Below, one piece after another: positions 10,946-29,019 of a DNA stretch of 30,817 nt. Where the stretch lies: the IMG/VR virus record IMGVR_UViG_3300007276_000187, positions 1 through 30,817 of that record; one strand, given 5' to 3'. Numbering within the stretch: position 1 is the first letter of the stretch; each line of letters starts with the position of its first letter. Made by a program: the position numbers and the translations under genes. Source of the DNA: a virus. The notes under the pieces are model-generated. The model was not told where the DNA came from. It saw only the letters and a program-made list of their open reading frames with translations, and did not search any database.

Positions 10946-11848
10946 TTATGCCTTATCTAATTTAACATTAGCCATTTCAGTGTTCTCTAGCACCTTAACG
11001 ATTTGAGCTTCTTCGTTCTTAGAGGCAGCATACTTAGCAGCTGCTCCAGGACCTTTAACGAAGTCACAGGTATTATAGAACGCACAGAACTTCTCTGAGC
11101 AGAACATATAATTAGGGTTACCTCTAAACAAGACGTCAGGTCTAACTACGTCTTGAGCCATAACATCTAGAGTGTCTAGCAGGTTGTTAACTAAAGCTTT
11201 AGACTGTACAACGTCAATGTTTGCATCCAACAGCATGCCTTCAGCCTTACCAGACTTTCTAAACACTACACCTTGTATCTGACCTTCAGTGATGTTCTCA
11301 CCATTAGCATTAGCTAAGATACGATAGATACTCTGTTGAGTTGTATAATTACCAACAGTTGGCTTTCGTGTAGATGTCTTAACATCCGCGATACAACTGC
11401 CTTCAATGTAATCCACAGTACCACTAAGGGCTTTAACAACAGAGTGACCTGGAATGTTGATTGTATAACGTTTCTCAACTGCCTTTGGAATAGTGACGAA
11501 AGGCACAATATCTTCAACAAAGGATTCAGTACCGACTAGGATGTCTTTCTGAGCTGTGCCCTTGTTTTCGCCGTCTTTAAACTGAAGCCCTAACTTCTCT
11601 TCTTCGGCAAATGCTTCCATAGCGCAGTCTACAACATGACTATAGCTTTCAAGCTTCTCGCCTGTCTTCATAGCACCTTCCCAGTACTCAGCTACGCCAG
11701 CATGTACCGCAGTACCAATGGCAGCTCGTGCATTAGGGATAGACCGCTCACCTAAGATAAATACACGGTACCACTGTTGTGCGCAACCCGTGAAGTTATC
11801 AATGGATGAAGGGCGGATAATAAGTTTGTCGTCGTCATTATAATTCAT
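10946..11848 (-). CDS. Cas4/RecB-like PD-(D/E)XK nuclease with probable Fe-S cluster
   Basis: A 300-residue exonuclease-like protein. Visible nuclease motifs are H49 in A-I-G-T-A-V-H, D146 in S-G-T-V-D-Y, D155-V-K157 and Q171/Q172 with Y175 in Q-Q-S-I-Y. Four cysteines are placed as in the Fe-S clusters of Cas4 and AddB proteins: C22 near the N-terminus, and C250, C255 and C261 in the C-terminal C-x4-C-x5-C. Residues after 262 are an Ala/Lys-rich tail. In phages such proteins degrade or resect DNA for replication and recombination. Lack of cas1/cas2 and CRISPR repeats here argues for a replication role rather than adaptation. The stop lies two bases before the helicase start, and the gene overlaps the deaminase end by 11 bases. 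Confidence 0.85.
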   Translation of the reverse strand: MNYNDDDKLIIRPSSIDNFTGCAQQWYRVFILGERSIPNARAAIGTAVHAGVAEYWEGAMKTGEKLESYSHVVDCAMEAFAEEEKLGLQFKDGENKGTAQKDILVGTESFVEDIVPFVTIPKAVEKRYTINIPGHSVVKALSGTVDYIEGSCIADVKTSTRKPTVGNYTTQQSIYRILANANGENITEGQIQGVVFRKSGKAEGMLLDANIDVVQSKALVNNLLDTLDVMAQDVVRPDVLFRGNPNYMFCSEKFCAFYNTCDFVKGPGAAAKYAASKNEEAQIVKVLENTEMANVKLDKA

Positions 11849-12272
11849 GTGAAGTCTCTGTATAAGTTACGCCAGCTTCTAGTAGTATGCTTCGAGCCAC
11901 GATGCATGATTCTGTCCACGAGCTATTTAGGTCAAGTTCTTTAGTTACTACTGCAGATATACCTGCTTGAGCAATCGCACACGCACAAGTTACGCATGGT
12001 GCTTTGTTTACAAACAAGGTCCAACCTGTTACATTTTGCCTCGCATTAAGTAAGGCGTTTAATTCGGCGTGGACCATTAGATTCAGCTTAACAGTCCTAT
12101 CCCTAAGTCTTTCATCGTCTTCCACACCTGCTGGGAATCCGTTATATCCATAAGAGAACTGTCTTTTGTCTGGAGAGACTAGAACAGCTCCTACCTTAGC
12201 CTTAGGATCCTTACTCCAAGAAGCAACTTCTTCTGCAAGCTTATAGAACCTAGTGATCCACTTACTATCCAT
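11838..12272 (-). CDS. dCMP (deoxycytidylate) deaminase
   Basis: A 144-residue zinc deaminase converting dCMP to dUMP. The zinc site is H-A-E at 68-70 (His68 ligand, Glu70 proton shuttle) with P-C-V-T-C at 92-96 (Cys93 and Cys96 ligands). The K-V-G-A-V-L and G-Y-N-G-F-P motifs of the family are present. The ATG at 12272 is preferred over a more distal in-frame start near 12308 because the protein then begins right at the conserved fold. It lies four bases after the dNMP kinase stop. Together with the kinase and the Asp177 thymidylate-synthase-like enzyme it forms a pyrimidine module; in T4 the equivalent enzyme helps supply dTMP and is controlled by hydroxymethyl-dCTP. Confidence 0.92.
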   Translation of the reverse strand: MDSKWITRFYKLAEEVASWSKDPKAKVGAVLVSPDKRQFSYGYNGFPAGVEDDERLRDRTVKLNLMVHAELNALLNARQNVTGWTLFVNKAPCVTCACAIAQAGISAVVTKELDLNSSWTESCIVARSILLEAGVTYTETSHEL

Positions 12273-12276
12273 AATA

Positions 12277-12966
12277 TTAACTCTCGGTTTTAGCCTTACT
12301 TGCAGCAAGTTTAGCGGCTAGACTCATTTTAGCAGTATCGAAAGCTACAGTTTTAGCAGCTGGATCCATGTTGGCAGTACTGAAAGCTGCAGGAGTTGAA
12401 TTAGCAACTACAACTTTAGGCAGTTCTGTCTTAGGTTCAAGTTTAATGTCTGTCAACACTGTCTTAGAAGGTTTAGCGCCCGCTCTTACTAAAGCTGCGT
12501 AAGATCGCTTCATGCTCAGGGCAAAGTCTTCAGGTTTATAATTGTTAACTATAACATAGTCTGCATCATCTTCCGTAAGTTCCATGATGCCTTCAGACTC
12601 TGGATTTACGTAAGACACTAACGGATCAGGCTTAACCCAGATTACCATGTCTGCTAATGGACGCATGGCTTCAAACTCTACTCTACGTCTTACACCTACA
12701 TAAATATCACTTTGTTCAAATGCCAACTTAGCTAAGGCTGCAGGATCGTCTGAACAATACTGAGCAATTAACTCTTTCCACTCTTGACGATGGTTAACAC
12801 GATCTTCATAACACTCTTCAACACTAGGATAATCTAATGCTTCCATGATGATGTGCTCTGCTGACAACATGCTAGTCTTTACAAACTTAAGACTGTAGTG
12901 ATGGCTAAACAACTCAGCTAGAGTGTCCTTGCCTGTTTGTGCGTTACCTATGATGATCAGTTTCAT
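12277..12966 (-). CDS. Deoxynucleoside monophosphate kinase-like P-loop protein
   Basis: A 229-residue protein. Residues 7-15 (GNAQTGKDT) form the Walker A loop with the Gly-Lys-Asp-Thr ending seen in phage dNMP kinases such as T4 gp1. A conserved-looking G-V-R-R-R-V-E-F-E segment near 93-101 supplies the arginines expected at the nucleotide-binding site. The last 60 residues are Ala/Lys/Thr-rich, contain two related A-x-x-T-A-x-M segments, and look disordered. The start overlaps the stop of the thymidylate-synthase-like gene by four bases, so the two are coupled. If the latter makes modified dCMP, this kinase is the natural candidate to phosphorylate it; substrate preference cannot be read from the sequence. 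Confidence 0.75.
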   Translation of the reverse strand: MKLIIIGNAQTGKDTLAELFSHHYSLKFVKTSMLSAEHIIMEALDYPSVEECYEDRVNHRQEWKELIAQYCSDDPAALAKLAFEQSDIYVGVRRRVEFEAMRPLADMVIWVKPDPLVSYVNPESEGIMELTEDDADYVIVNNYKPEDFALSMKRSYAALVRAGAKPSKTVLTDIKLEPKTELPKVVVANSTPAAFSTANMDPAAKTVAFDTAKMSLAAKLAASKAKTES

Positions 12967-13775
12967 GCTACTACCTCAAAGTTATATTTAGTTTCGGAAG
13001 GCTTATAGCCAACCAGTTCGATTGTGTCACGGTTAAAGTCTGTGACAGACTTTATATTTGTCATGGTCCATCTAGGTAGGTCGAACGGTTCCGTCGTCGA
13101 ACCCTCATCTAGAGTCAAGTACAGTAGCGCTTGTGTGGCATGCTGACTGTAGATGTGAACGTCACCCATCATGAACGTCATAGATCCTGGCTCTAATCCT
13201 ACTAGTTTACAAATGACCAGTAGTAAAGCTGCAGCTAATATGACATCTGAAGGTAGGCCAACCAACACATCAACAGACCGCATATACCAAATGCAATCTA
13301 GCTTACCGTCTCGTACATAGAACTGATAAAGTATGTGACAGCAAGGTAGCGACAACGAGTCTAGTCTGTCAGGTCTCCAGCCTGAGATTATGTGTCTTCT
13401 ACTTGTAGGGTCTTCTTTTAACGATTTTATCAGTCGTTCGAACTGGTCTACGCCATTCCAGTCAAACCAAGCATTGCCATAGTCTAACTCTAGGCTGCCG
13501 TCTTCATTAGCCCACTGCTCCCAGTAGTGGCAACCTGCTTTGGTGAAGTCGTCCACGTGCTTTGGTTGGTTAAGAAACGCAGCTAACTCACCAAGCACAC
13601 CTTTGTAGTACATCTTCCTACCTTTTAATATAGGGAACCTAAAGCTGTTAAGACAGTCAATCTTAAGTGTCTTAGCAAACACAGACAATGAATTCTTGTC
13701 GTTTCTAGTGTTCCTAAGTTGCGGTTTATCTATAATCTCCGCAACTAAGGCCCTGTAGTCGTCTTCATAGCTCAT
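12963..13775 (-). CDS. Thymidylate-synthase-family enzyme with Asp177: predicted dCMP methylase/hydroxymethylase
   Basis: A 270-residue protein with the full thymidylate synthase fold. Visible are R-R-H-I-I-S at 126-131 (phosphate-binding arginines), L-P-C-C-H at 143-147 with catalytic Cys146, R-S-V-D at 166-169, and G-D-V-H-I-Y-S at 204-210. The key deviation is G-L-P-S-D at 173-177. True thymidylate synthases have Asn at the last position (E. coli GLPFN, Asn177), which selects dUMP. T4 dCMP hydroxymethylase has Asp there, and an Asn-to-Asp change is known to shift the family to dCMP. I therefore infer a dCMP-modifying enzyme, methylating or hydroxymethylating C5 using methylene-tetrahydrofolate; which of the two is undecided. 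Neighbours are dNMP kinase (overlap) and DNA polymerase (1-base gap). Confidence 0.85.
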   Translation of the reverse strand: MSYEDDYRALVAEIIDKPQLRNTRNDKNSLSVFAKTLKIDCLNSFRFPILKGRKMYYKGVLGELAAFLNQPKHVDDFTKAGCHYWEQWANEDGSLELDYGNAWFDWNGVDQFERLIKSLKEDPTSRRHIISGWRPDRLDSLSLPCCHILYQFYVRDGKLDCIWYMRSVDVLVGLPSDVILAAALLLVICKLVGLEPGSMTFMMGDVHIYSQHATQALLYLTLDEGSTTEPFDLPRWTMTNIKSVTDFNRDTIELVGYKPSETKYNFEVVA

Positions 13776-13776
13776 A

Positions 13777-15459
13777 TTAATATGTCCTCGAATAATCTGT
13801 TATACCTTTTTCAATGTCTCCCCAGTTGCTTCCTACGCCAACCTCAACAGGCATTTGTAGGTCTTTAACTAAGGTCATCTTACTGAACTCAGACCATGCG
13901 TCTTTCATAGCCTCAGCCAATAACCGTGCAACTCTTTGATAGATCACAGGATCATCAGGAGTCTCGATCTTGTATGAATCGTGAATGAAGTTAACCATCA
14001 TTGAATCATTGGGCTTCAAGTCGTCATATACATACTGCATCGCTAACTTAGCTACATCAGCACCAGAAGCCTGGTTGTATATGTTCATATGATCTGTTAT
14101 TCTTGCTGCTTTGTACTTACGACCAAAAGGCGACTCTCCTAACCTGCCCGCCTTAAAATCCCTAATACTATCAGTTTGCCACTTAACAATGCCAGGAAAC
14201 GCACGCTTCCAAACACGGATAAGTTTTGCGACTTCATCTGTCTCAAGCCATACATCAGCTTGCATGAGAAGGATGGATTGCAACATACCAGCAGAACCAC
14301 CATAAAGTAAGTTAAAGTTTTCTGTCTTGGCAATACGTCTTTGTTCAGGAGTATAGCCAGCACCAAACGTCTTCTCTGCGGTGTAACCATGAGGATCCTC
14401 TCCCATTCTAAAAAGATTAACTAAGGTTCTGTCGTTGATACTAGCAGCGATTGTGCGTAGCTCTAACTGGGCGAAATCGGCAAACACTATCTTGCGACCT
14501 TCAGGTGCTCCAAAGCAACCTTTAGATGCTCTAGGTATCTGTTGCAAGTTTTGATCTTTACAAGTGAATCGACCAGACTTAGCATACGGCCCGAACTTGC
14601 CATAGATTCTACCTTCGTGATCTTTAGTTCTATCGAACTTATCTAAGAATGATATTAGCTTAGTTGCTTTACGAGTAGCTCTAACTGCTGCGGCTTTATC
14701 ATTGCCACCTCTAACAAACCTCGCTAAGTCTAAATCAGTAGATTCGTCTTCACCTATGTAAGGTCTAACCTGTTGCCAACTGTTACAATTGATAGGTAAT
14801 GCTATCTCTCTTATTTTCTGGACGTTCGCATTACGCAACTCGTCTAACCTGTCACCTACGACATATAGACCGTTGGTTTGGAAGTCTAAAGCACGTTTCA
14901 AGGCTCGTATATCGATTTGATAAGACAGCTGAGACTTGAATGACTTGATCTTATCGAACGTATCCAACAGGTAGAACACATCAATAGCTGCGTACGTCAG
15001 CACATCAGGAGTCAGTTCTACTTTACCCCAAGCAAGCTTCTGATACTTTGACTTGGCTATGCCATGTGCTGCATAAGGGTCAAACTCCAGAGCGAAAGCC
15101 ATAATGTTATCTAGACTGAAAGATTCCAATCGAGGGTACGCATGTCTCGCTAGCAGTAGAGTATCGTCTAGGTTCTTAGGTACTAACTTCATACCGCTTT
15201 GGGTTTGTACAGCACTAACATCATATGCTACATTTTGCATAACTAGGTTTGCATTTGTAGTAGTGAGTAGAGCGAGTAGTAAGAAAGGTTCGGGGCGAAC
15301 AACCATGAGAGCTTCGTCCCAGTGTTGTTGATAGAATTGAGCTAAGATTGTGGTACCGTAGAAGCCGTCGGCCTCAGTATCGAAGGCAACATCAAAGTCT
15401 TCATTGATTGCTGCTTTTACTTCTTCAAGCGTAACTAATTTGTACTTTAGTTCTCTCAT
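13777..15459 (-). CDS. Family A DNA polymerase with 3'-5' exonuclease
   Basis: A 560-residue replicative polymerase lacking a 5'-3' exonuclease domain. Proofreading motifs are D-T-E-A-D at 27-31 (Exo I), N-V-A-Y-D with D80 (Exo II) and Y-A-A-I-D with D160 (Exo III). Polymerase motif A is D-F-A-Q-L-E-L-R with catalytic D328. The O-helix has R374, K378, F382 and Y386; Phe382 corresponds to E. coli Phe762. Motif C is H493-D494 in F-I-H-D-S. At 560 residues it is shorter than T7 gp5 (about 704). A good ribosome site (AAAGGAAAC) precedes the ATG. It is the first gene after the terminator downstream of SSB, so it may need its own promoter or terminator read-through. Confidence 0.95.
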   Translation of the reverse strand: MRELKYKLVTLEEVKAAINEDFDVAFDTEADGFYGTTILAQFYQQHWDEALMVVRPEPFLLLALLTTTNANLVMQNVAYDVSAVQTQSGMKLVPKNLDDTLLLARHAYPRLESFSLDNIMAFALEFDPYAAHGIAKSKYQKLAWGKVELTPDVLTYAAIDVFYLLDTFDKIKSFKSQLSYQIDIRALKRALDFQTNGLYVVGDRLDELRNANVQKIREIALPINCNSWQQVRPYIGEDESTDLDLARFVRGGNDKAAAVRATRKATKLISFLDKFDRTKDHEGRIYGKFGPYAKSGRFTCKDQNLQQIPRASKGCFGAPEGRKIVFADFAQLELRTIAASINDRTLVNLFRMGEDPHGYTAEKTFGAGYTPEQRRIAKTENFNLLYGGSAGMLQSILLMQADVWLETDEVAKLIRVWKRAFPGIVKWQTDSIRDFKAGRLGESPFGRKYKAARITDHMNIYNQASGADVAKLAMQYVYDDLKPNDSMMVNFIHDSYKIETPDDPVIYQRVARLLAEAMKDAWSEFSKMTLVKDLQMPVEVGVGSNWGDIEKGITDYSRTY

Positions 15460-21056: not shown

Positions 21057-21788
21057 ATGAAACACGAATTATCAGTAGCAAAACGAACAGTGCAAATGTT
21101 GCAACGTCAAGAAACCTTACAATGTCACTTAGACCCTAATTGGGTTGAAGCCGACAATGATCATATATTAGCTGCAGTCATTGAACTTGGTGAGATGTGT
21201 GATTGGCTTGGCTATAAGTGGTGGAAGCACGTAGAATTTAATGTTACTTCCTATGAACAGGCTCAATTAGAGTTGGTTGATGTATGGCATTTCGTAATGA
21301 ATAAGGCCTTAACTCATACAAGTCCTGAGGCTTATATAGACTTCGGTATTGGCATGCAGAAAGCCTTTGAAGCATTGGATGATCCAAACTGTGAACGTGT
21401 AGATATTCTGTTCAACAAAGAACACAGAGCTGAGTACACTAGCCTGGTTAAGCACTGTATGACGCTATTGTTGTCAGGTACTGTAGACTTATATATCTTG
21501 GCTTGTCTAAGTGTTAACATCGGACTAGACTTTGATACTCTGTACGGTAAGTACATGGCTAAGAGTACTCTCAATCTGTTTCGTTGGAATAATGGCTATG
21601 GTAACGGCACTTATGGAAAGATATGGTACAGTGTTTACAGTACATACACTCTTGAAGATAACGAAGTAATGCTAGCAATCATAGCCGCTAAGGAGTTCGA
21701 CAGTTATGAAGAGTTATATACATTGTTAGGAGTTGCATATGCCCATGATGAAACTATGAGACAAATTCAGGAAGAAGTGCGAATATAG
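21057..21788 (+). CDS. dUTPase/dCTPase of the dimeric all-alpha NTP-pyrophosphatase family
   Basis: A 243-residue enzyme of the dUTPase_2 type. Metal ligands are the E-L-G-E of A-V-I-E-L-G-E (E43, E46) and the E-x-x-D of L-E-L-V-D (E72, D75). A later F-R-W-N-N-G-Y-G-N-G-T-Y-G-K-I-W stretch near 178-193 matches the substrate loop of dimeric dUTPases. The E-L-V-D-V-W-H-F-V-M-N segment closely resembles T4 gp56 (ELVDIFHFVLN), which hydrolyses both dCTP and dUTP. Start: GGAG at 21045-21048 before the ATG at 21057. With the Asp177 dCMP-modifying enzyme, removal of dCTP would be the logical job. Sequence alone cannot separate dCTPase from dUTPase. Confidence 0.85.
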   Translation: MKHELSVAKRTVQMLQRQETLQCHLDPNWVEADNDHILAAVIELGEMCDWLGYKWWKHVEFNVTSYEQAQLELVDVWHFVMNKALTHTSPEAYIDFGIGMQKAFEALDDPNCERVDILFNKEHRAEYTSLVKHCMTLLLSGTVDLYILACLSVNIGLDFDTLYGKYMAKSTLNLFRWNNGYGNGTYGKIWYSVYSTYTLEDNEVMLAIIAAKEFDSYEELYTLLGVAYAHDETMRQIQEEVRI

Positions 21789-23694: not shown

Positions 23695-23963
23695 GAGAAA
23701 TACAGGAAACGTTGCTCATTATGCAAGACATGGTGTGCACTGCAGTAATTGAAGAACCCGCAGAGACAACAGAAGTAGTAGAACATGTTGAGTTCTTAGA
23801 TCGTCCTACAGAAGAGATACTAATAATTAGTCTCGCAGTCTTATGTGCGTTCTATGTACTAGTTAAGATGTTCTGTGGTTTTGTTATACACGGTATAGCA
23901 CTTATAATTGCCATATTTGAAGGCTACTCAAACATACGTAAACTAAAGAAGAAACTAAAATGA
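23691..23963 (+). CDS. Small membrane protein, probably two helices
   Basis: 90 residues. The first 40 are soluble and acidic, with a Thr/Glu/Val-rich stretch (E-E-P-A-E-T-T-E-V-V-E). Two close hydrophobic segments follow at about 43-58 and 60-77, then a basic tail (R-K-L-K-K-K-L-K). Coupled by ATGA to the preceding membrane gene and to the DUF4116-like repeat gene downstream, which suggests that the solenoid protein could be recruited to the membrane. This last point is inference. Confidence 0.7.
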   Translation: MREIQETLLIMQDMVCTAVIEEPAETTEVVEHVEFLDRPTEEILIISLAVLCAFYVLVKMFCGFVIHGIALIIAIFEGYSNIRKLKKKLK

Positions 23964-25165
23964 AAAACATAATTGATTTAGGTGTTGCAGCAGGTCTAAG
24001 TGAAGAGCAAATAAAAGGCGCAGACCTCATGTTGCGAAATGTGACTGGTGAAGGTTTAGACTACCAACCTACAGGTGTAGATCCGAGAGACTTAGCACTG
24101 TTACGTAGAAATGTAGCTCAGACGGAAGAGTTCGCTCTAGCATCTGTTGCTATAGATGGTATGAGATTGAAGTTTGTTCGGGAGCAAAATCAAGCGATAT
24201 GTAAGGCTGCAGTAGAACAAAACGGTCTTGCTATACAGTATGTAAAGGTTGATAATAATTCTCTTAATATGCTTGAGTTGTCTATCATGGCAGTCAAACA
24301 AAACGGTTTGGCTCTTCAATACCCAACGTGCTGCGATATAGATGAGGTGCATCAAATCGCAGTCAAACATGACGGCATGGCTCTTGCGTTCTGCACCTAT
24401 CCTACCCTAGAAACATGCGAACTTGCGGTCCAACAGAATGGTCTAGCTATACAGTATGTACAACATCCTAACATAGAACTGTGTAAAATGGCAGTGGCTC
24501 AGACTGGTGCAGCATTTCCGTTGTGTGTTAATGTTATGCACACAAGTGGCAGTCATGACACAGTTATGGCTGACATACTGAGTCTTAATGAGCTTGCTCT
24601 ACTAGGCGATGGTAACAACATAAGATACATTGACCATCCTAGTGCACAAGAAAAACGTATTGCAGTCGAAGAAAATGGTCGGGCTCTTAAGTACATTGGT
24701 TTTGCAGATCTTGAAGTCCAGAAGGCTGCAGTTAAACAAAACGGCTTGGCTATACAATTCATACACAACCCTAGTGAGGAAGTCGTAGATATTGCAGTTG
24801 AACAGAATGGCGGCGCACTAGTCTATGTTAAATACCAACTAGACCGCCAAAGACTTATAGCAGTCAAGAATTATGCATACGCCTTACCGTATTGTACTCA
24901 GCAAAGTATAACAGTAGTCATGGCTGCTGTTATGACTGACGGCTTGGTTCTTCAATACGTACTTAGACCAACTCCTGAAGTGTGCCTTGCAGCAGTGATG
25001 GAAGACGGCAATGCATTACAATTTGTTCCTGCTGCGTTGCAGACTGAGGCCATATGCATAGCTGCAATAAAACAGTCTAAGTTTGCATTACAATACGTAG
25101 ATCATTCTCTGTTTGTTGAGTTTCATACAGGCTACAAATTTGACGATGACGACATACCTTTCTAG
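23960..25165 (+). CDS. DUF4116-like solenoid repeat protein, about 13 repeats
   Basis: A 401-residue protein made of about 13 copies of a 22-24 residue unit with the consensus A-V-x-Q-N-G-x-A-L-Q-Y-V followed by a short turn and x-x-x-x-C/E-x-x-A-V. This matches the DUF4116 family, known mainly from Legionella, giant viruses and protists, where the role is unclear. One unit near 175-215 has an insertion (V-M-H-T-S-G-S-H). The repeats are diverged at DNA level, unlike those at 28366. The last residues are acidic. It ends a six-gene coupled cluster and is followed by a strong terminator. Probably an alpha-helical protein-binding scaffold; the partner is unknown. Confidence 0.8.
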   Translation: MKNIIDLGVAAGLSEEQIKGADLMLRNVTGEGLDYQPTGVDPRDLALLRRNVAQTEEFALASVAIDGMRLKFVREQNQAICKAAVEQNGLAIQYVKVDNNSLNMLELSIMAVKQNGLALQYPTCCDIDEVHQIAVKHDGMALAFCTYPTLETCELAVQQNGLAIQYVQHPNIELCKMAVAQTGAAFPLCVNVMHTSGSHDTVMADILSLNELALLGDGNNIRYIDHPSAQEKRIAVEENGRALKYIGFADLEVQKAAVKQNGLAIQFIHNPSEEVVDIAVEQNGGALVYVKYQLDRQRLIAVKNYAYALPYCTQQSITVVMAAVMTDGLVLQYVLRPTPEVCLAAVMEDGNALQFVPAALQTEAICIAAIKQSKFALQYVDHSLFVEFHTGYKFDDDDIPF

Positions 25166-26369: not shown

Positions 26370-26875
26370 ACAGACAAATAGTTAAAACTAAGTTTGAAGA
26401 AGGCGATGAAGCCAAAGCATATAAGTGCACGGCTGGCAAGTGGACTGTAGGTGCAGGTATTAACATCGAGCAGCAACCTCTACCGAAGGCAGTCAGAACA
26501 CTCTGGGAGCACACTGAGCATGTCCCTGACAACTGGGTTATCATGTTACTTGGAGGTGGTGAGATGCCACAGAAGGTGCGTGATTTGTGGTTAGATATTA
26601 TACTGTCAGAGTTGGAGGCTGAATTAGAGTGTGAGCATATCTCTTGTGCGTTCACTCCAGGTTTTGAAGATCTAGACTTGGTACTACTAGATATGGCGTA
26701 TCAGATGGGCATTGAAGGTTTATGTGGCTTTAAGAGGATGATAGCAGCTATTAACTGTTGTAGCTATAACGTAGCTGCACTTGAGTTACTGGATTCTAAG
26801 TACGCTCGAGAAGACTCACCCAATAGAGCACGTCGTAACGCCGAACTATTGAGAGGGCTGCAACGATGGCAGTAA
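26366..26875 (+). CDS. Endolysin, T4-type lysozyme (GH24) with E-C-T catalytic triad
   Basis: A 169-residue muramidase that cleaves peptidoglycan for host lysis. The catalytic pattern is Glu12-x8-Cys21-x5-Thr27 in E-G-D-E-A-K-A-Y-K-C-T-A-G-K-W-T. The Asp20 of T4 lysozyme is replaced by Cys, an accepted variant of the E-8-D/C-5-T signature, and T4 D20C is reported as active. The C-terminal A-Y-Q-M-G, G-F and P-N-R-A-R-R-N motifs match the family. No signal peptide or SAR segment is visible, so export needs a holin; none sits next to it. It overlaps both neighbours (ATGA before, 10 bases after). Confidence 0.88.
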   Translation: MNRQIVKTKFEEGDEAKAYKCTAGKWTVGAGINIEQQPLPKAVRTLWEHTEHVPDNWVIMLLGGGEMPQKVRDLWLDIILSELEAELECEHISCAFTPGFEDLDLVLLDMAYQMGIEGLCGFKRMIAAINCCSYNVAALELLDSKYAREDSPNRARRNAELLRGLQRWQ

Positions 26876-27246
26876 GAGTATTCAGTTCGTATTATGAATT
26901 CAAATGTAGAAAGGACAAAGCTGTAAATGGTGTTAGTAGTCATTTTGCTAAGGTGCATCCCAACTGGGCTGAGCTAAGTGACACTAACAAAGGTTGTTGG
27001 AATTGTCTAGAGTGTCACGGCTGTACTGATTGTGCGTGGTGTAGCTACTGCTCTTACTGTTCAGGGTGTAGTATGTGTTCTAACTGCTCCCGTTGTGAAT
27101 CGTGTGAGTCTTGTAAGTATTGCGTATATGCAACTACGTTACGCCACAAGGACAGTGTAGGTGGTGACATAGATCACGATAAAGGTTCATTGATAGGTCG
27201 CATGTTTAAAGCAATTGGTTCGGCATTAAAAGGATGGCTAAAATGA
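26866..27246 (+). CDS. Cysteine-ladder protein: 15 cysteines at exact three-residue spacing
   Basis: 126 residues, ATG with GAGAGGG upstream. Residues 44-86 contain Cys at every third position (44, 47, 50 and so on to 86), 15 in all, with varied residues between; codons are mixed (TGT and TGC), so this is not a simple DNA repeat. The N-terminal 40 residues are soluble and basic/aromatic. The last 18 residues (L-I-G-R-M-F-K-A-I-G-S-A-L-K-G-W-L-K) form a cationic amphipathic helix like membrane-active peptides. Three-residue periodicity would stack all thiols on one face of a solenoid or polyproline-like helix. Similar CxxCxxC repeats occur unannotated in other viruses. It follows the lysozyme directly, so a lysis or membrane role is possible. 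Confidence 0.75.
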   Translation: MAVRVFSSYYEFKCRKDKAVNGVSSHFAKVHPNWAELSDTNKGCWNCLECHGCTDCAWCSYCSYCSGCSMCSNCSRCESCESCKYCVYATTLRHKDSVGGDIDHDKGSLIGRMFKAIGSALKGWLK

Positions 27247-27655: not shown

Positions 27656-28156
27656 ATGTCACTAGATATGAACAAATTAATTAAGATGTCAGGATCTGCT
27701 TATGTGCTTGAAGATGAAGTTCAAATACTGTCTGATTTCAATGGTGCTGCAGTACAGACTGAAGAAATGGCTATGGAAGCTGTATCACTAAACGCAGACC
27801 ACTTAGAATTTGTCCACGATCAAACTGCTGATGTGTGTGGGATGGCTCTGGCATGTGACGCGACAACACTACGTCATATTCGTCGACAATCTGGTGAATT
27901 GTGCTTCTTCGCTATTTATCAGAATGCGATGGCTCTTCAGTATGTTCACAATCAAAACCATGCCATGTGTATAGCAGCTGTTAAACAAGAAGGTATTGCT
28001 CTTCGATACGTTAGACATCAAACTGAAGCGATATGTATAGCTGCTGTGTCAGAGAATGGTCTTGCTCTTCAGTATGTTCGTGATCAAACACAAGATGTAT
28101 GTGAAGCCGCTATCATACAGAACAATCAAGCTATTAATTATGTGCGTGTTGGTTAA
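27656..28156 (+). CDS. DUF4116-like solenoid repeat protein, six repeats
   Basis: 166 residues. After a 30-residue N-terminal part beginning M-S-L-D-M-N-K-L-I come six 22-residue repeats with the consensus R-x-Q-T-x-x-x-C-x-x-A-V/A-x-x-N-x-x-A-L-Q-Y-V, matching the DUF4116 pattern of the 401-residue protein and the R-N-Q-T-E-E form of the next gene. The first residues are nearly the same as those of the next gene (MSLDxNxLI), as are leader and terminator, so the two genes are duplicates that have since changed repeat number. Probably a helical protein-protein interaction scaffold; partner unknown. Confidence 0.8.
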   Translation: MSLDMNKLIKMSGSAYVLEDEVQILSDFNGAAVQTEEMAMEAVSLNADHLEFVHDQTADVCGMALACDATTLRHIRRQSGELCFFAIYQNAMALQYVHNQNHAMCIAAVKQEGIALRYVRHQTEAICIAAVSENGLALQYVRDQTQDVCEAAIIQNNQAINYVRVG

Positions 28157-28365: not shown

Positions 28366-29019
28366 ATGTCGCTAGATAAGAACGAACTAATTGCTTTATC
28401 AGGTATGTCCGATGACGAGATTCTTAAACTGAGAGAGCAAACTATTAATAACGATTGCGACGATCTGCTTCATGCTGTTGAGCAAACTGAAGAGCAGTGT
28501 ATGAATGCTATCGAAGAGAGTGGTGCTAACCTTCTAACCATTCGCGATCAAACTGAAGGGTTGTGTGAGTTTGCTGTCGCGTACGATCCTGACAACCTTC
28601 GATATGTTCGTAATCAAACCGAAGAGTTATGTACTCTTGCTATTGAGCTTGTTCCGGCGTTTCTAGGGCATGTTCGTAATCAAACTGATGAGTTGTGCGA
28701 ACGTACTGTAAGACGTAATCCTTATACTATTCAGTTCGTTCATAATCAAACCGAAGAGTTATGTCTTCTCGCTGTCGGTATTGATCCTTCAACTCTGTCA
28801 GTCATTCGTAATCAAACCGAAGAGATATGTCTATTAGCTGTCAAGAATTATGCATTCGCTATTCGTGAGGTTCGTAATCAAACCGAAGAGATATGTCTTG
28901 CTGCTGTTAAGATAGACGGTCTAGCTCTGGCGTATGTTCGTAATCAAACCCAAGCAGTCTGCGAAGCTGCTATCGAGAATAACCCTGAAGCAATATCGGT
29001 CATCCGCTTCCCTAGTTAA
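28366..29019 (+). CDS. DUF4116-like solenoid repeat protein, eight R-N-Q-T-E-E repeats
   Basis: 217 residues: an N-terminal MSLDKNELIALSG segment, then eight tandem 22-residue repeats with consensus R-N-Q-T-E-E-L/I-C-x-x-A-V-x-x-x-P/G-x-x-L-x-x-V. At DNA level the repeats are 66 bp units sharing the near-identical core CGTAATCAAACCGAAGAG, for instance around 28609, 28744, 28807 and 28873. This indicates recent expansion, or gene conversion between repeats, while the second half of each unit varies. That pattern (fixed scaffold, variable surface) suits a binding protein under diversifying selection. Promoter, leader and terminator match those of the previous gene. Confidence 0.8.
   Translation: MSLDKNELIALSGMSDDEILKLREQTINNDCDDLLHAVEQTEEQCMNAIEESGANLLTIRDQTEGLCEFAVAYDPDNLRYVRNQTEELCTLAIELVPAFLGHVRNQTDELCERTVRRNPYTIQFVHNQTEELCLLAVGIDPSTLSVIRNQTEEICLLAVKNYAFAIREVRNQTEEICLAAVKIDGLALAYVRNQTQAVCEAAIENNPEAISVIRFPS

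What the first reader, a model, noticed from the sequence alone, without database searches (positions are those of the whole stretch)
12963..13775. Thymidylate-synthase homologue with Asp177: phage DNA may carry modified cytosine
The G-L-P-S-D motif replaces the G-L-P-x-N of thymidylate synthases, with Asp at the position equivalent to E. coli Asn177 and to Asp179 of T4 dCMP hydroxymethylase. Catalytic Cys146 and the phosphate-binding arginines are intact. This substitution is known to shift specificity from dUMP to dCMP. The window therefore probably encodes a dCMP methylase or hydroxymethylase, implying partial or full cytosine replacement in the virion DNA of a small podovirus-like phage.
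Basis: partly seen in the sequence, partly recalled or inferred. Interest (0 to 1): 0.82.

Follow-up and report, generated by a model that had tools for sequence, protein, structure and literature searches.

The report
Phage enzyme predicted to methylate cytosine nucleotides
A small short-tailed phage carries a thymidylate-synthase relative whose key residue has switched so that it should modify cytosine instead of uracil nucleotides, and a whole family of aquatic phages shares the switch, so these phages probably build chemically altered cytosine (most likely 5-methylcytosine) into their DNA.

Summary
Window 12963-13775 (minus strand) encodes a 270-aa thymidylate-synthase (TS) homologue with Asp at E. 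coli position 177 and the rest of the catalytic set intact. It is not a one-off: 77 of 80 viral-contig relatives and seven named podoviruses/siphoviruses (KF-1, PH1, VPMS1, Amaethon and others, six annotated 'thymidylate synthase') share Asp177. The other three carry Asn177 and are nested inside the clade.

The published hydroxymethylase signature (acidic residue 3 before the catalytic Cys; Ser/Thr 2 before the active-site Tyr) is present in 80/80 T4 gp42 relatives. It is absent from the window and its clade, which keep TS-like residues and the C-terminal tail. The better model is a dCMP methylase (5-methyl-dCMP), as inferred for phage XP12, in a lineage distinct from T4 gp42.

Flanking genes (dNMP-kinase-like, dCMP deaminase, distal dUTPase_2-family protein) fit a modified-nucleotide pathway. 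The clade avoids 6-bp palindromes only weakly, like modified-DNA phages and unlike control podoviruses.

Substrate, product and virion DNA are inferred, not shown. The Asp177-modified-cytosine link is already published (MetaGPA 2021): a new variant of a known kind.

The parts
12963..13775 (-). TS-fold enzyme with Asp177, predicted dCMP methylase (270 aa)
   Evidence: Pfam PF00303 215 bits; Asp177 and the other catalytic residues; AlphaFold2 pLDDT 93, nearest solved structures are TS
13245..13247 (-). codon of Asp177, the cytosine/uracil specificity position
   Evidence: alignment to EcThyA Asn177 and T4 gp42 Asp179; coordinates computed from the ORF
13338..13349 (-). codons of Leu143-Pro-Cys145-Cys146: catalytic Cys146 and the TS-like Leu at -3 (Asp in hydroxymethylases)
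12277..12966 (-). P-loop kinase, probably a deoxynucleoside monophosphate kinase resembling T4 gp1; overlaps the 3' end of the TS gene
   Evidence: phrog_139 8e-10; profile match to T4 gp1 at both the P-loop and the C-terminal region; below the Pfam DNMK cut-off; kinase fold, not discriminating
11838..12308 (-). dCMP-type deaminase (a start at about 12272 is more likely than the listed TTG)
   Evidence: PF00383 1e-19; phrog_174 1e-41; Trp equivalent to XP-12 W128
13777..15459 (-). family A DNA polymerase with 3'-5' exonuclease, adjacent upstream
   Evidence: PF00476 3e-40, PF01612 9e-9
21057..21788 (+). dUTPase_2-family pyrophosphohydrolase, candidate dCTPase/dUTPase
   Evidence: PF08761 6e-17; T4 gp56 dCTPase matches the same family above cut-off

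Best explanation
The gene encodes a TS-fold dCMP methylase. Asp177 recognises the cytosine base (shown for T4 gp42 and for engineered TS, inferred here). Cys146 attacks C6, methylene-THF adds a one-carbon unit at C5, and, because the hydride-transfer side of the pocket is TS-like, the product is 5-methyl-dCMP plus dihydrofolate (inferred). The neighbouring dNMP-kinase-like protein and the dUTPase_2-type (dCTPase) enzyme would raise 5-methyl-dCTP and deplete dCTP, so that the adjacent phage polymerase builds 5-methylcytosine into phage DNA as protection against restriction (inferred). The adjacent deaminase would balance the pool and could turn 5-methyl-dCMP into dTMP, as XP-12 does at the triphosphate level (inferred).
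For: Asp177 in 77/80 relatives and seven named phages; Asp here is the established switch to dCMP and marks cytosine-modified contigs (PMC8670742). Hydroxymethylase signature absent in the whole clade but invariant in 80 gp42 relatives; Trp80, Trp83, Leu143 and the C-terminal tail are TS-like. XP12-type enzymes, from phages with 5-methylcytosine, also have Asp177 without the acidic residue. Kinase, deaminase and dUTPase_2 neighbours. No ThyX. Palindrome O/E of the clade 0.91 against 0.53-0.75 in three control groups.
Against: No biochemical or mass-spectrometric data for any member. Invariant Asp98 (EcTS 93) lies where T4 has Ser94 and could activate water. His147 is kept, whereas position 147 differs in the modified contigs of MetaGPA. 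Few members encode DHFR, which a methylase would benefit from. The kinase assignment is moderate. VPMS1 DNA has been run after HhaI treatment, outcome unclear.
Confidence: 0.5

Rival explanations
1. dCMP hydroxymethylase with a non-T4 active site: water rather than hydride attacks the exocyclic methylene, perhaps activated by the invariant Asp98 (EcTS 93), giving 5-hydroxymethylcytosine DNA.
For: Asp177 fits either product; invariant Asp at the position said to be equivalent to T4 Ser94; most members lack DHFR, which hydroxymethylation does not need; kinase, deaminase and dUTPase_2 neighbours are also the T4 set.
Against: No Asp/Glu at -3 and no Ser/Thr at -2, both invariant in 80 gp42 relatives, and T4 D145N is inactive; TS-like tail and tryptophans; no carbamoyltransferase and no recognised sugar-transfer gene among the window proteins scanned.
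Confidence: 0.2
2. dCMP methylase that serves thymidylate supply rather than DNA protection: 5-methyl-dCMP is deaminated to dTMP by the adjacent deaminase, and virion cytosine stays normal or nearly so.
For: Deaminase present in 33 of 37 records and 47 of 62 Asp177 loci, but in none of the three Asn177 loci; dCMP deaminases accept 5-methyl-dCMP and XP-12 makes dTTP this way; methyl-facing Trp conserved.
Against: Does not by itself explain weak palindrome avoidance or the dUTPase_2 and kinase genes; that Trp is also present in PBCV-1, which has no such route; Asp177 members without a deaminase exist.
Confidence: 0.12
3. Ordinary thymidylate synthase: the clade tolerates Asp177 and still methylates dUMP to dTMP.
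For: Fold, His147 and all other TS residues are conserved; nearest solved relatives are TS; the deaminase next door is the classic source of dUMP.
Against: Asp177 is fixed in a divergent clade, whereas Asn is the dUMP determinant; engineered TS with Asp prefers dCMP (PMC8670742); the Asn177 members lack the deaminase, the reverse of what this model expects (few cases).
Confidence: 0.1

Closest known systems
XP12 / Bosavirus-type TS homologue (studied through AXL1 gp63), phages with 5-methylcytosine
   Same: Asp177; no acidic residue at -3; co-located dCMP deaminase and pyrophosphohydrolase
   Different: 26% identical; Pro147 instead of His147, Asn at -3 instead of Leu; separate well-supported clade; encodes DHFR
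T4 gp42 dCMP hydroxymethylase
   Same: Asp at the base-recognition position, catalytic Cys, phosphate-binding Arg pair; also accompanied by dNMP kinase, deaminase and dUTPase_2-family dCTPase
   Different: 22% identical; window lacks Asp145 and Ser94 equivalents and has a TS-type C-terminal tail
E. coli ThyA (canonical thymidylate synthase)
   Same: Same fold (TM 0.9) and, apart from 177, the same catalytic residues
   Different: Asn177 to Asp; Val93 to Asp; Ala144-Pro145 to Pro-Cys; Phe176 to Ser
Asp177 TS homologues of cytosine-modified environmental phage contigs (MetaGPA, PMC8670742)
   Same: Asp177; co-occurring dCMP deaminase and DNA ligase domains
   Different: Those also differ at position 147; the window keeps His147. 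Whether this clade was among them was not checked

Membership tests
T4-type dCMP hydroxymethylase | Asp at EcTS 177 / T4 179 | tested here: met
T4-type dCMP hydroxymethylase | Asp/Glu three residues before the catalytic Cys | tested here: not met
   Leu143 in the window and 80/80 relatives; Asp in 80/80 gp42 relatives
T4-type dCMP hydroxymethylase | Ser/Thr two residues before the active-site Tyr | tested here: not met
   Leu97 in the window, V/L/I in the clade; Ser in 80/80 gp42 relatives
T4-type dCMP hydroxymethylase | groups with gp42 in a tree | tested here: not met
   the window clade (100/99) is separate from the gp42 clade (100/98); long branches noted
dCMP methylase (XP12-like function) | Asp177 with TS-like hydride-transfer pocket | tested here: met
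   Asp177, Trp80, Trp83, Leu143 and C-terminal tail
dCMP methylase (XP12-like function) | makes 5-methyl-dCMP; 5-methylcytosine in virion DNA | not testable with these tools
   needs enzyme assay and nucleoside mass spectrometry
dCMP methylase (XP12-like function) | same lineage as the XP12-type enzyme | tested here: inconclusive
   separate clades, but the order of TS, XP12-type and window clades is unresolved
Canonical thymidylate synthase (dUMP) | Asn at EcTS 177 | tested here: not met
   Asp177
TS superfamily | PF00303 above cut-off, TS fold, catalytic Cys and Arg set | tested here: met
   215 bits against cut-off 24.3
CMP hydroxymethylase (MilA) | Lys and Ala at the Arg126 and Ser167 positions | tested here: not met
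   Arg126 and Ser167 present
T4 gp1-type dNMP kinase (12277-12966) | PF21448 above cut-off | tested here: inconclusive
   15.7 bits against 27.1; profile match to T4 gp1; kinase fold not discriminating
dUTPase_2 / dCTPase family (21057-21788) | PF08761 above cut-off, as for T4 gp56 | tested here: met
   62.8 against 22.9 bits; T4 gp56 25.4 bits; dCTP against dUTP preference not testable

The most novel reading that the evidence does not exclude
A widespread group of aquatic podoviruses converged, independently of T4 and probably of XP12, on a cytosine-specific TS with its own active-site pattern (Asp93, Cys145-Cys146-His147, Asp177). It replaces cytosine by 5-methylcytosine throughout the genome and also draws thymidylate from 5-methyl-dCMP through the linked deaminase; members that reverted to Asn177 lost both traits.
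Probability: 0.25. Interest if true: 0.72.

Novelty: new variant of a known kind. Interest (0 to 1): 0.5.

Why it matters
To my knowledge, phages with cytosine fully replaced by 5-methylcytosine are known essentially from XP12 and its relatives. If this prediction holds, many podoviruses now labelled as carrying an ordinary thymidylate synthase, including cultured ones such as KF-1, PH1 and VPMS1, have modified DNA. That would change expectations for restriction, type IV defence, CRISPR and sequencing-library bias, and it would provide simple cultured models. The two-residue test gives a quick way to separate methylase from hydroxymethylase among annotated phage TS genes, and the natural Asn177 reversions are a built-in control.

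Tried and rejected
The single-protein viral-contig scan with the window TS found nothing; the alignment scan worked. XP12 itself (MT664984) is not in the collection, so its relative AXL1 was used. The ct1fd225 'bifunctional DHFR-TS' (L003:329-1339) is not TS-like (no PF00303 match there). Carbamoyltransferase (5cmC route) and ThyX were searched and not found. PF21448 across the clade gave one sub-threshold hit. For published restriction data on clade members only the VPMS1 HhaI gel was found; I judged it inconclusive, because the figure is not held and full digestion should leave no fragment above about 1.8 kb in the 34 kb held. The KF-1/IW-1 paper has no modification data. The kinase fold search did not single out dNMP kinase. 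In the palindrome test T7-like controls alone were unfair (enterobacterial hosts), so cyanopodovirus and N4-like controls were added; the two usable Asn177 loci did not differ significantly from the clade (p=0.36). Glycosyltransferase families were not searched across the clade, so absence of sugar decoration is not established there.

Full report
Observation. The window is a 30,817-base virus record held as one contig; such records are often fragments. The ORF at 12963-13775 on the minus strand encodes a 270-aa TS homologue. Every catalytic residue of E. coli ThyA that I examined is present, with Asp in place of Asn177. The AlphaFold2 model (mean pLDDT 93) superposes on E. coli TS at 1.7 A.

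It is a clade property. Seven named phages (Edwardsiella KF-1, Dickeya Amaethon, Pseudoalteromonas PH1, Vibrio VPMS1, Pelagibacter Kolga, and two podovirus genomes from a Florida spring) and 77 of 80 viral-contig relatives carry Asp177. Invariant across the 80 are also Leu143, Pro144, Cys145, Cys146, His147, Tyr94, Trp80 and an unusual Asp at position 93. Three members have Asn177; the tree nests them at separate places inside the clade, and well-supported branches force at least two separate changes. Six of the seven named phages are annotated simply as thymidylate synthase; one is labelled 'pyrimidine hmase'.

Substrate. Asp at this position is the known determinant of cytosine recognition: it is Asp179 in T4 gp42, and Asn-to-Asp shifts TS towards dCMP (PMC8670742; PMC5175136; PMC6400193). 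Arg126 and Ser167 argue for a deoxyribonucleotide rather than CMP. The step from residue to substrate is inference from these families.

Methyl or hydroxymethyl. PMC6400193 proposes as hydroxymethylase signature an Asp/Glu three residues before the catalytic Cys and a Ser (or Thr) two residues before the Tyr. I tested this on 80 gp42 relatives: D145, S94 and D179 are invariant. The window clade has Leu143 and V/L/I there, keeps Trp83, and has the C-terminal tail that gp42 lacks. The XP12-type group has Asp177 without the acidic residue at -3, as here; XP12 itself has 5-methylcytosine in place of cytosine (PMC7653180) and AXL1 DNA resists most enzymes with G/C in their sites (PMC9206674). That the XP12 TS homologue is the dCMP methylase is itself an inference. 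The mechanism most consistent with all this is reductive methylation to 5-methyl-dCMP. A caveat is the invariant Asp93, which lies where T4 is said to have Ser94 and might activate water; hydroxymethylase is therefore kept as a rival.

Pathway context. Next to the gene lie a family A polymerase and, with overlapping ends, a P-loop kinase resembling T4 gp1 dNMP kinase and a dCMP deaminase. A dUTPase_2-family protein, the family that includes T4 gp56 dCTPase, lies at 21057-21788. Relatives mostly place a MazG-like pyrophosphohydrolase and a deaminase after the TS gene. Among 37 records (36 of the clade plus AXL1) 33 have a dCMP deaminase, none has ThyX or a carbamoyltransferase, and each has a single TS homologue, split by the contig ends in one. 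The deaminase carries the Trp that in the XP-12 enzyme faces the 5-methyl group (W128; PMC12088426), though PBCV-1 has it too. The kinase assignment is moderate only: its Pfam score is below cut-off and the fold search does not discriminate.

Genome-scale hint of modified DNA. Phages exposed to restriction tend to lose palindromic sites (my own knowledge of that literature). For C/G-containing 6-bp palindromes, with a maximal-order Markov expectation, observed/expected is 0.91 in 52 dereplicated Asp177 loci and 0.95 in the window. It is 0.99 in gp42-type loci and 0.88 in XP12-type loci, against 0.53 in T7-like, 0.75 in cyanopodovirus and 0.74 in N4-like loci (p below 1e-7 against each of the three controls). 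The clade thus behaves like phages with modified cytosine. Hosts differ between groups, the loci are related, the controls are presumed rather than proven unmodified, and the Asn177 loci are too few to contrast, so this is supporting evidence, not decisive.

What is shown and what is inferred. Shown: the gene, Asp177, its conservation, the absence of the hydroxymethylase signature, the neighbours and the palindrome statistics. Inferred: dCMP as substrate (about 85%), methyl rather than hydroxymethyl product (about 70% given dCMP), and incorporation into virion DNA (about 75%).

Novelty. The general link between Asp177 TS and modified cytosine is published (MetaGPA, 2021). I found no paper in the held library describing modified DNA or Asp177 in this podovirus group, but most subscription papers are not held. 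It is therefore a new variant of a known kind: a separate lineage with its own residue pattern and a specific, testable prediction.

Noticed in passing
window 23960-25165, 27656-28156, 28366-29019 (+): Three proteins built of DUF4116 (PF13475) repeats in one small phage genome; function unknown.
   Followed up: no
L019, L031, L047 (TS genes): Three relatives have Asn177 and are nested inside the Asp177 clade, suggesting reversions; none of the three loci shows a recognisable dCMP deaminase, against 47 of 62 Asp177 loci with enough flank.
   Followed up: partly
L001:17611-18219 (KF-1 ORF27): dCMP deaminase fused to a dATP/dGTP diphosphohydrolase domain (PF00383 + PF18909); similar matches in Amaethon and PH1.
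   Followed up: partly
L006 (VPMS1), L005 (PH1): Extreme GATC depletion: 1 site in 34 kb of VPMS1 and 3 in 28 kb of PH1, against about 69 and 50 expected; the window is not depleted.
   Followed up: partly
window 12963-13775, residue Cys145: A second cysteine directly before the catalytic Cys146 (PCCH), invariant in 80/80 relatives, where TS has Pro145; role unknown.
   Followed up: partly
window 26866-27246 (+): Small protein with a run of closely spaced cysteines (repeats of the type CxxC), possibly metal-binding.
   Followed up: no
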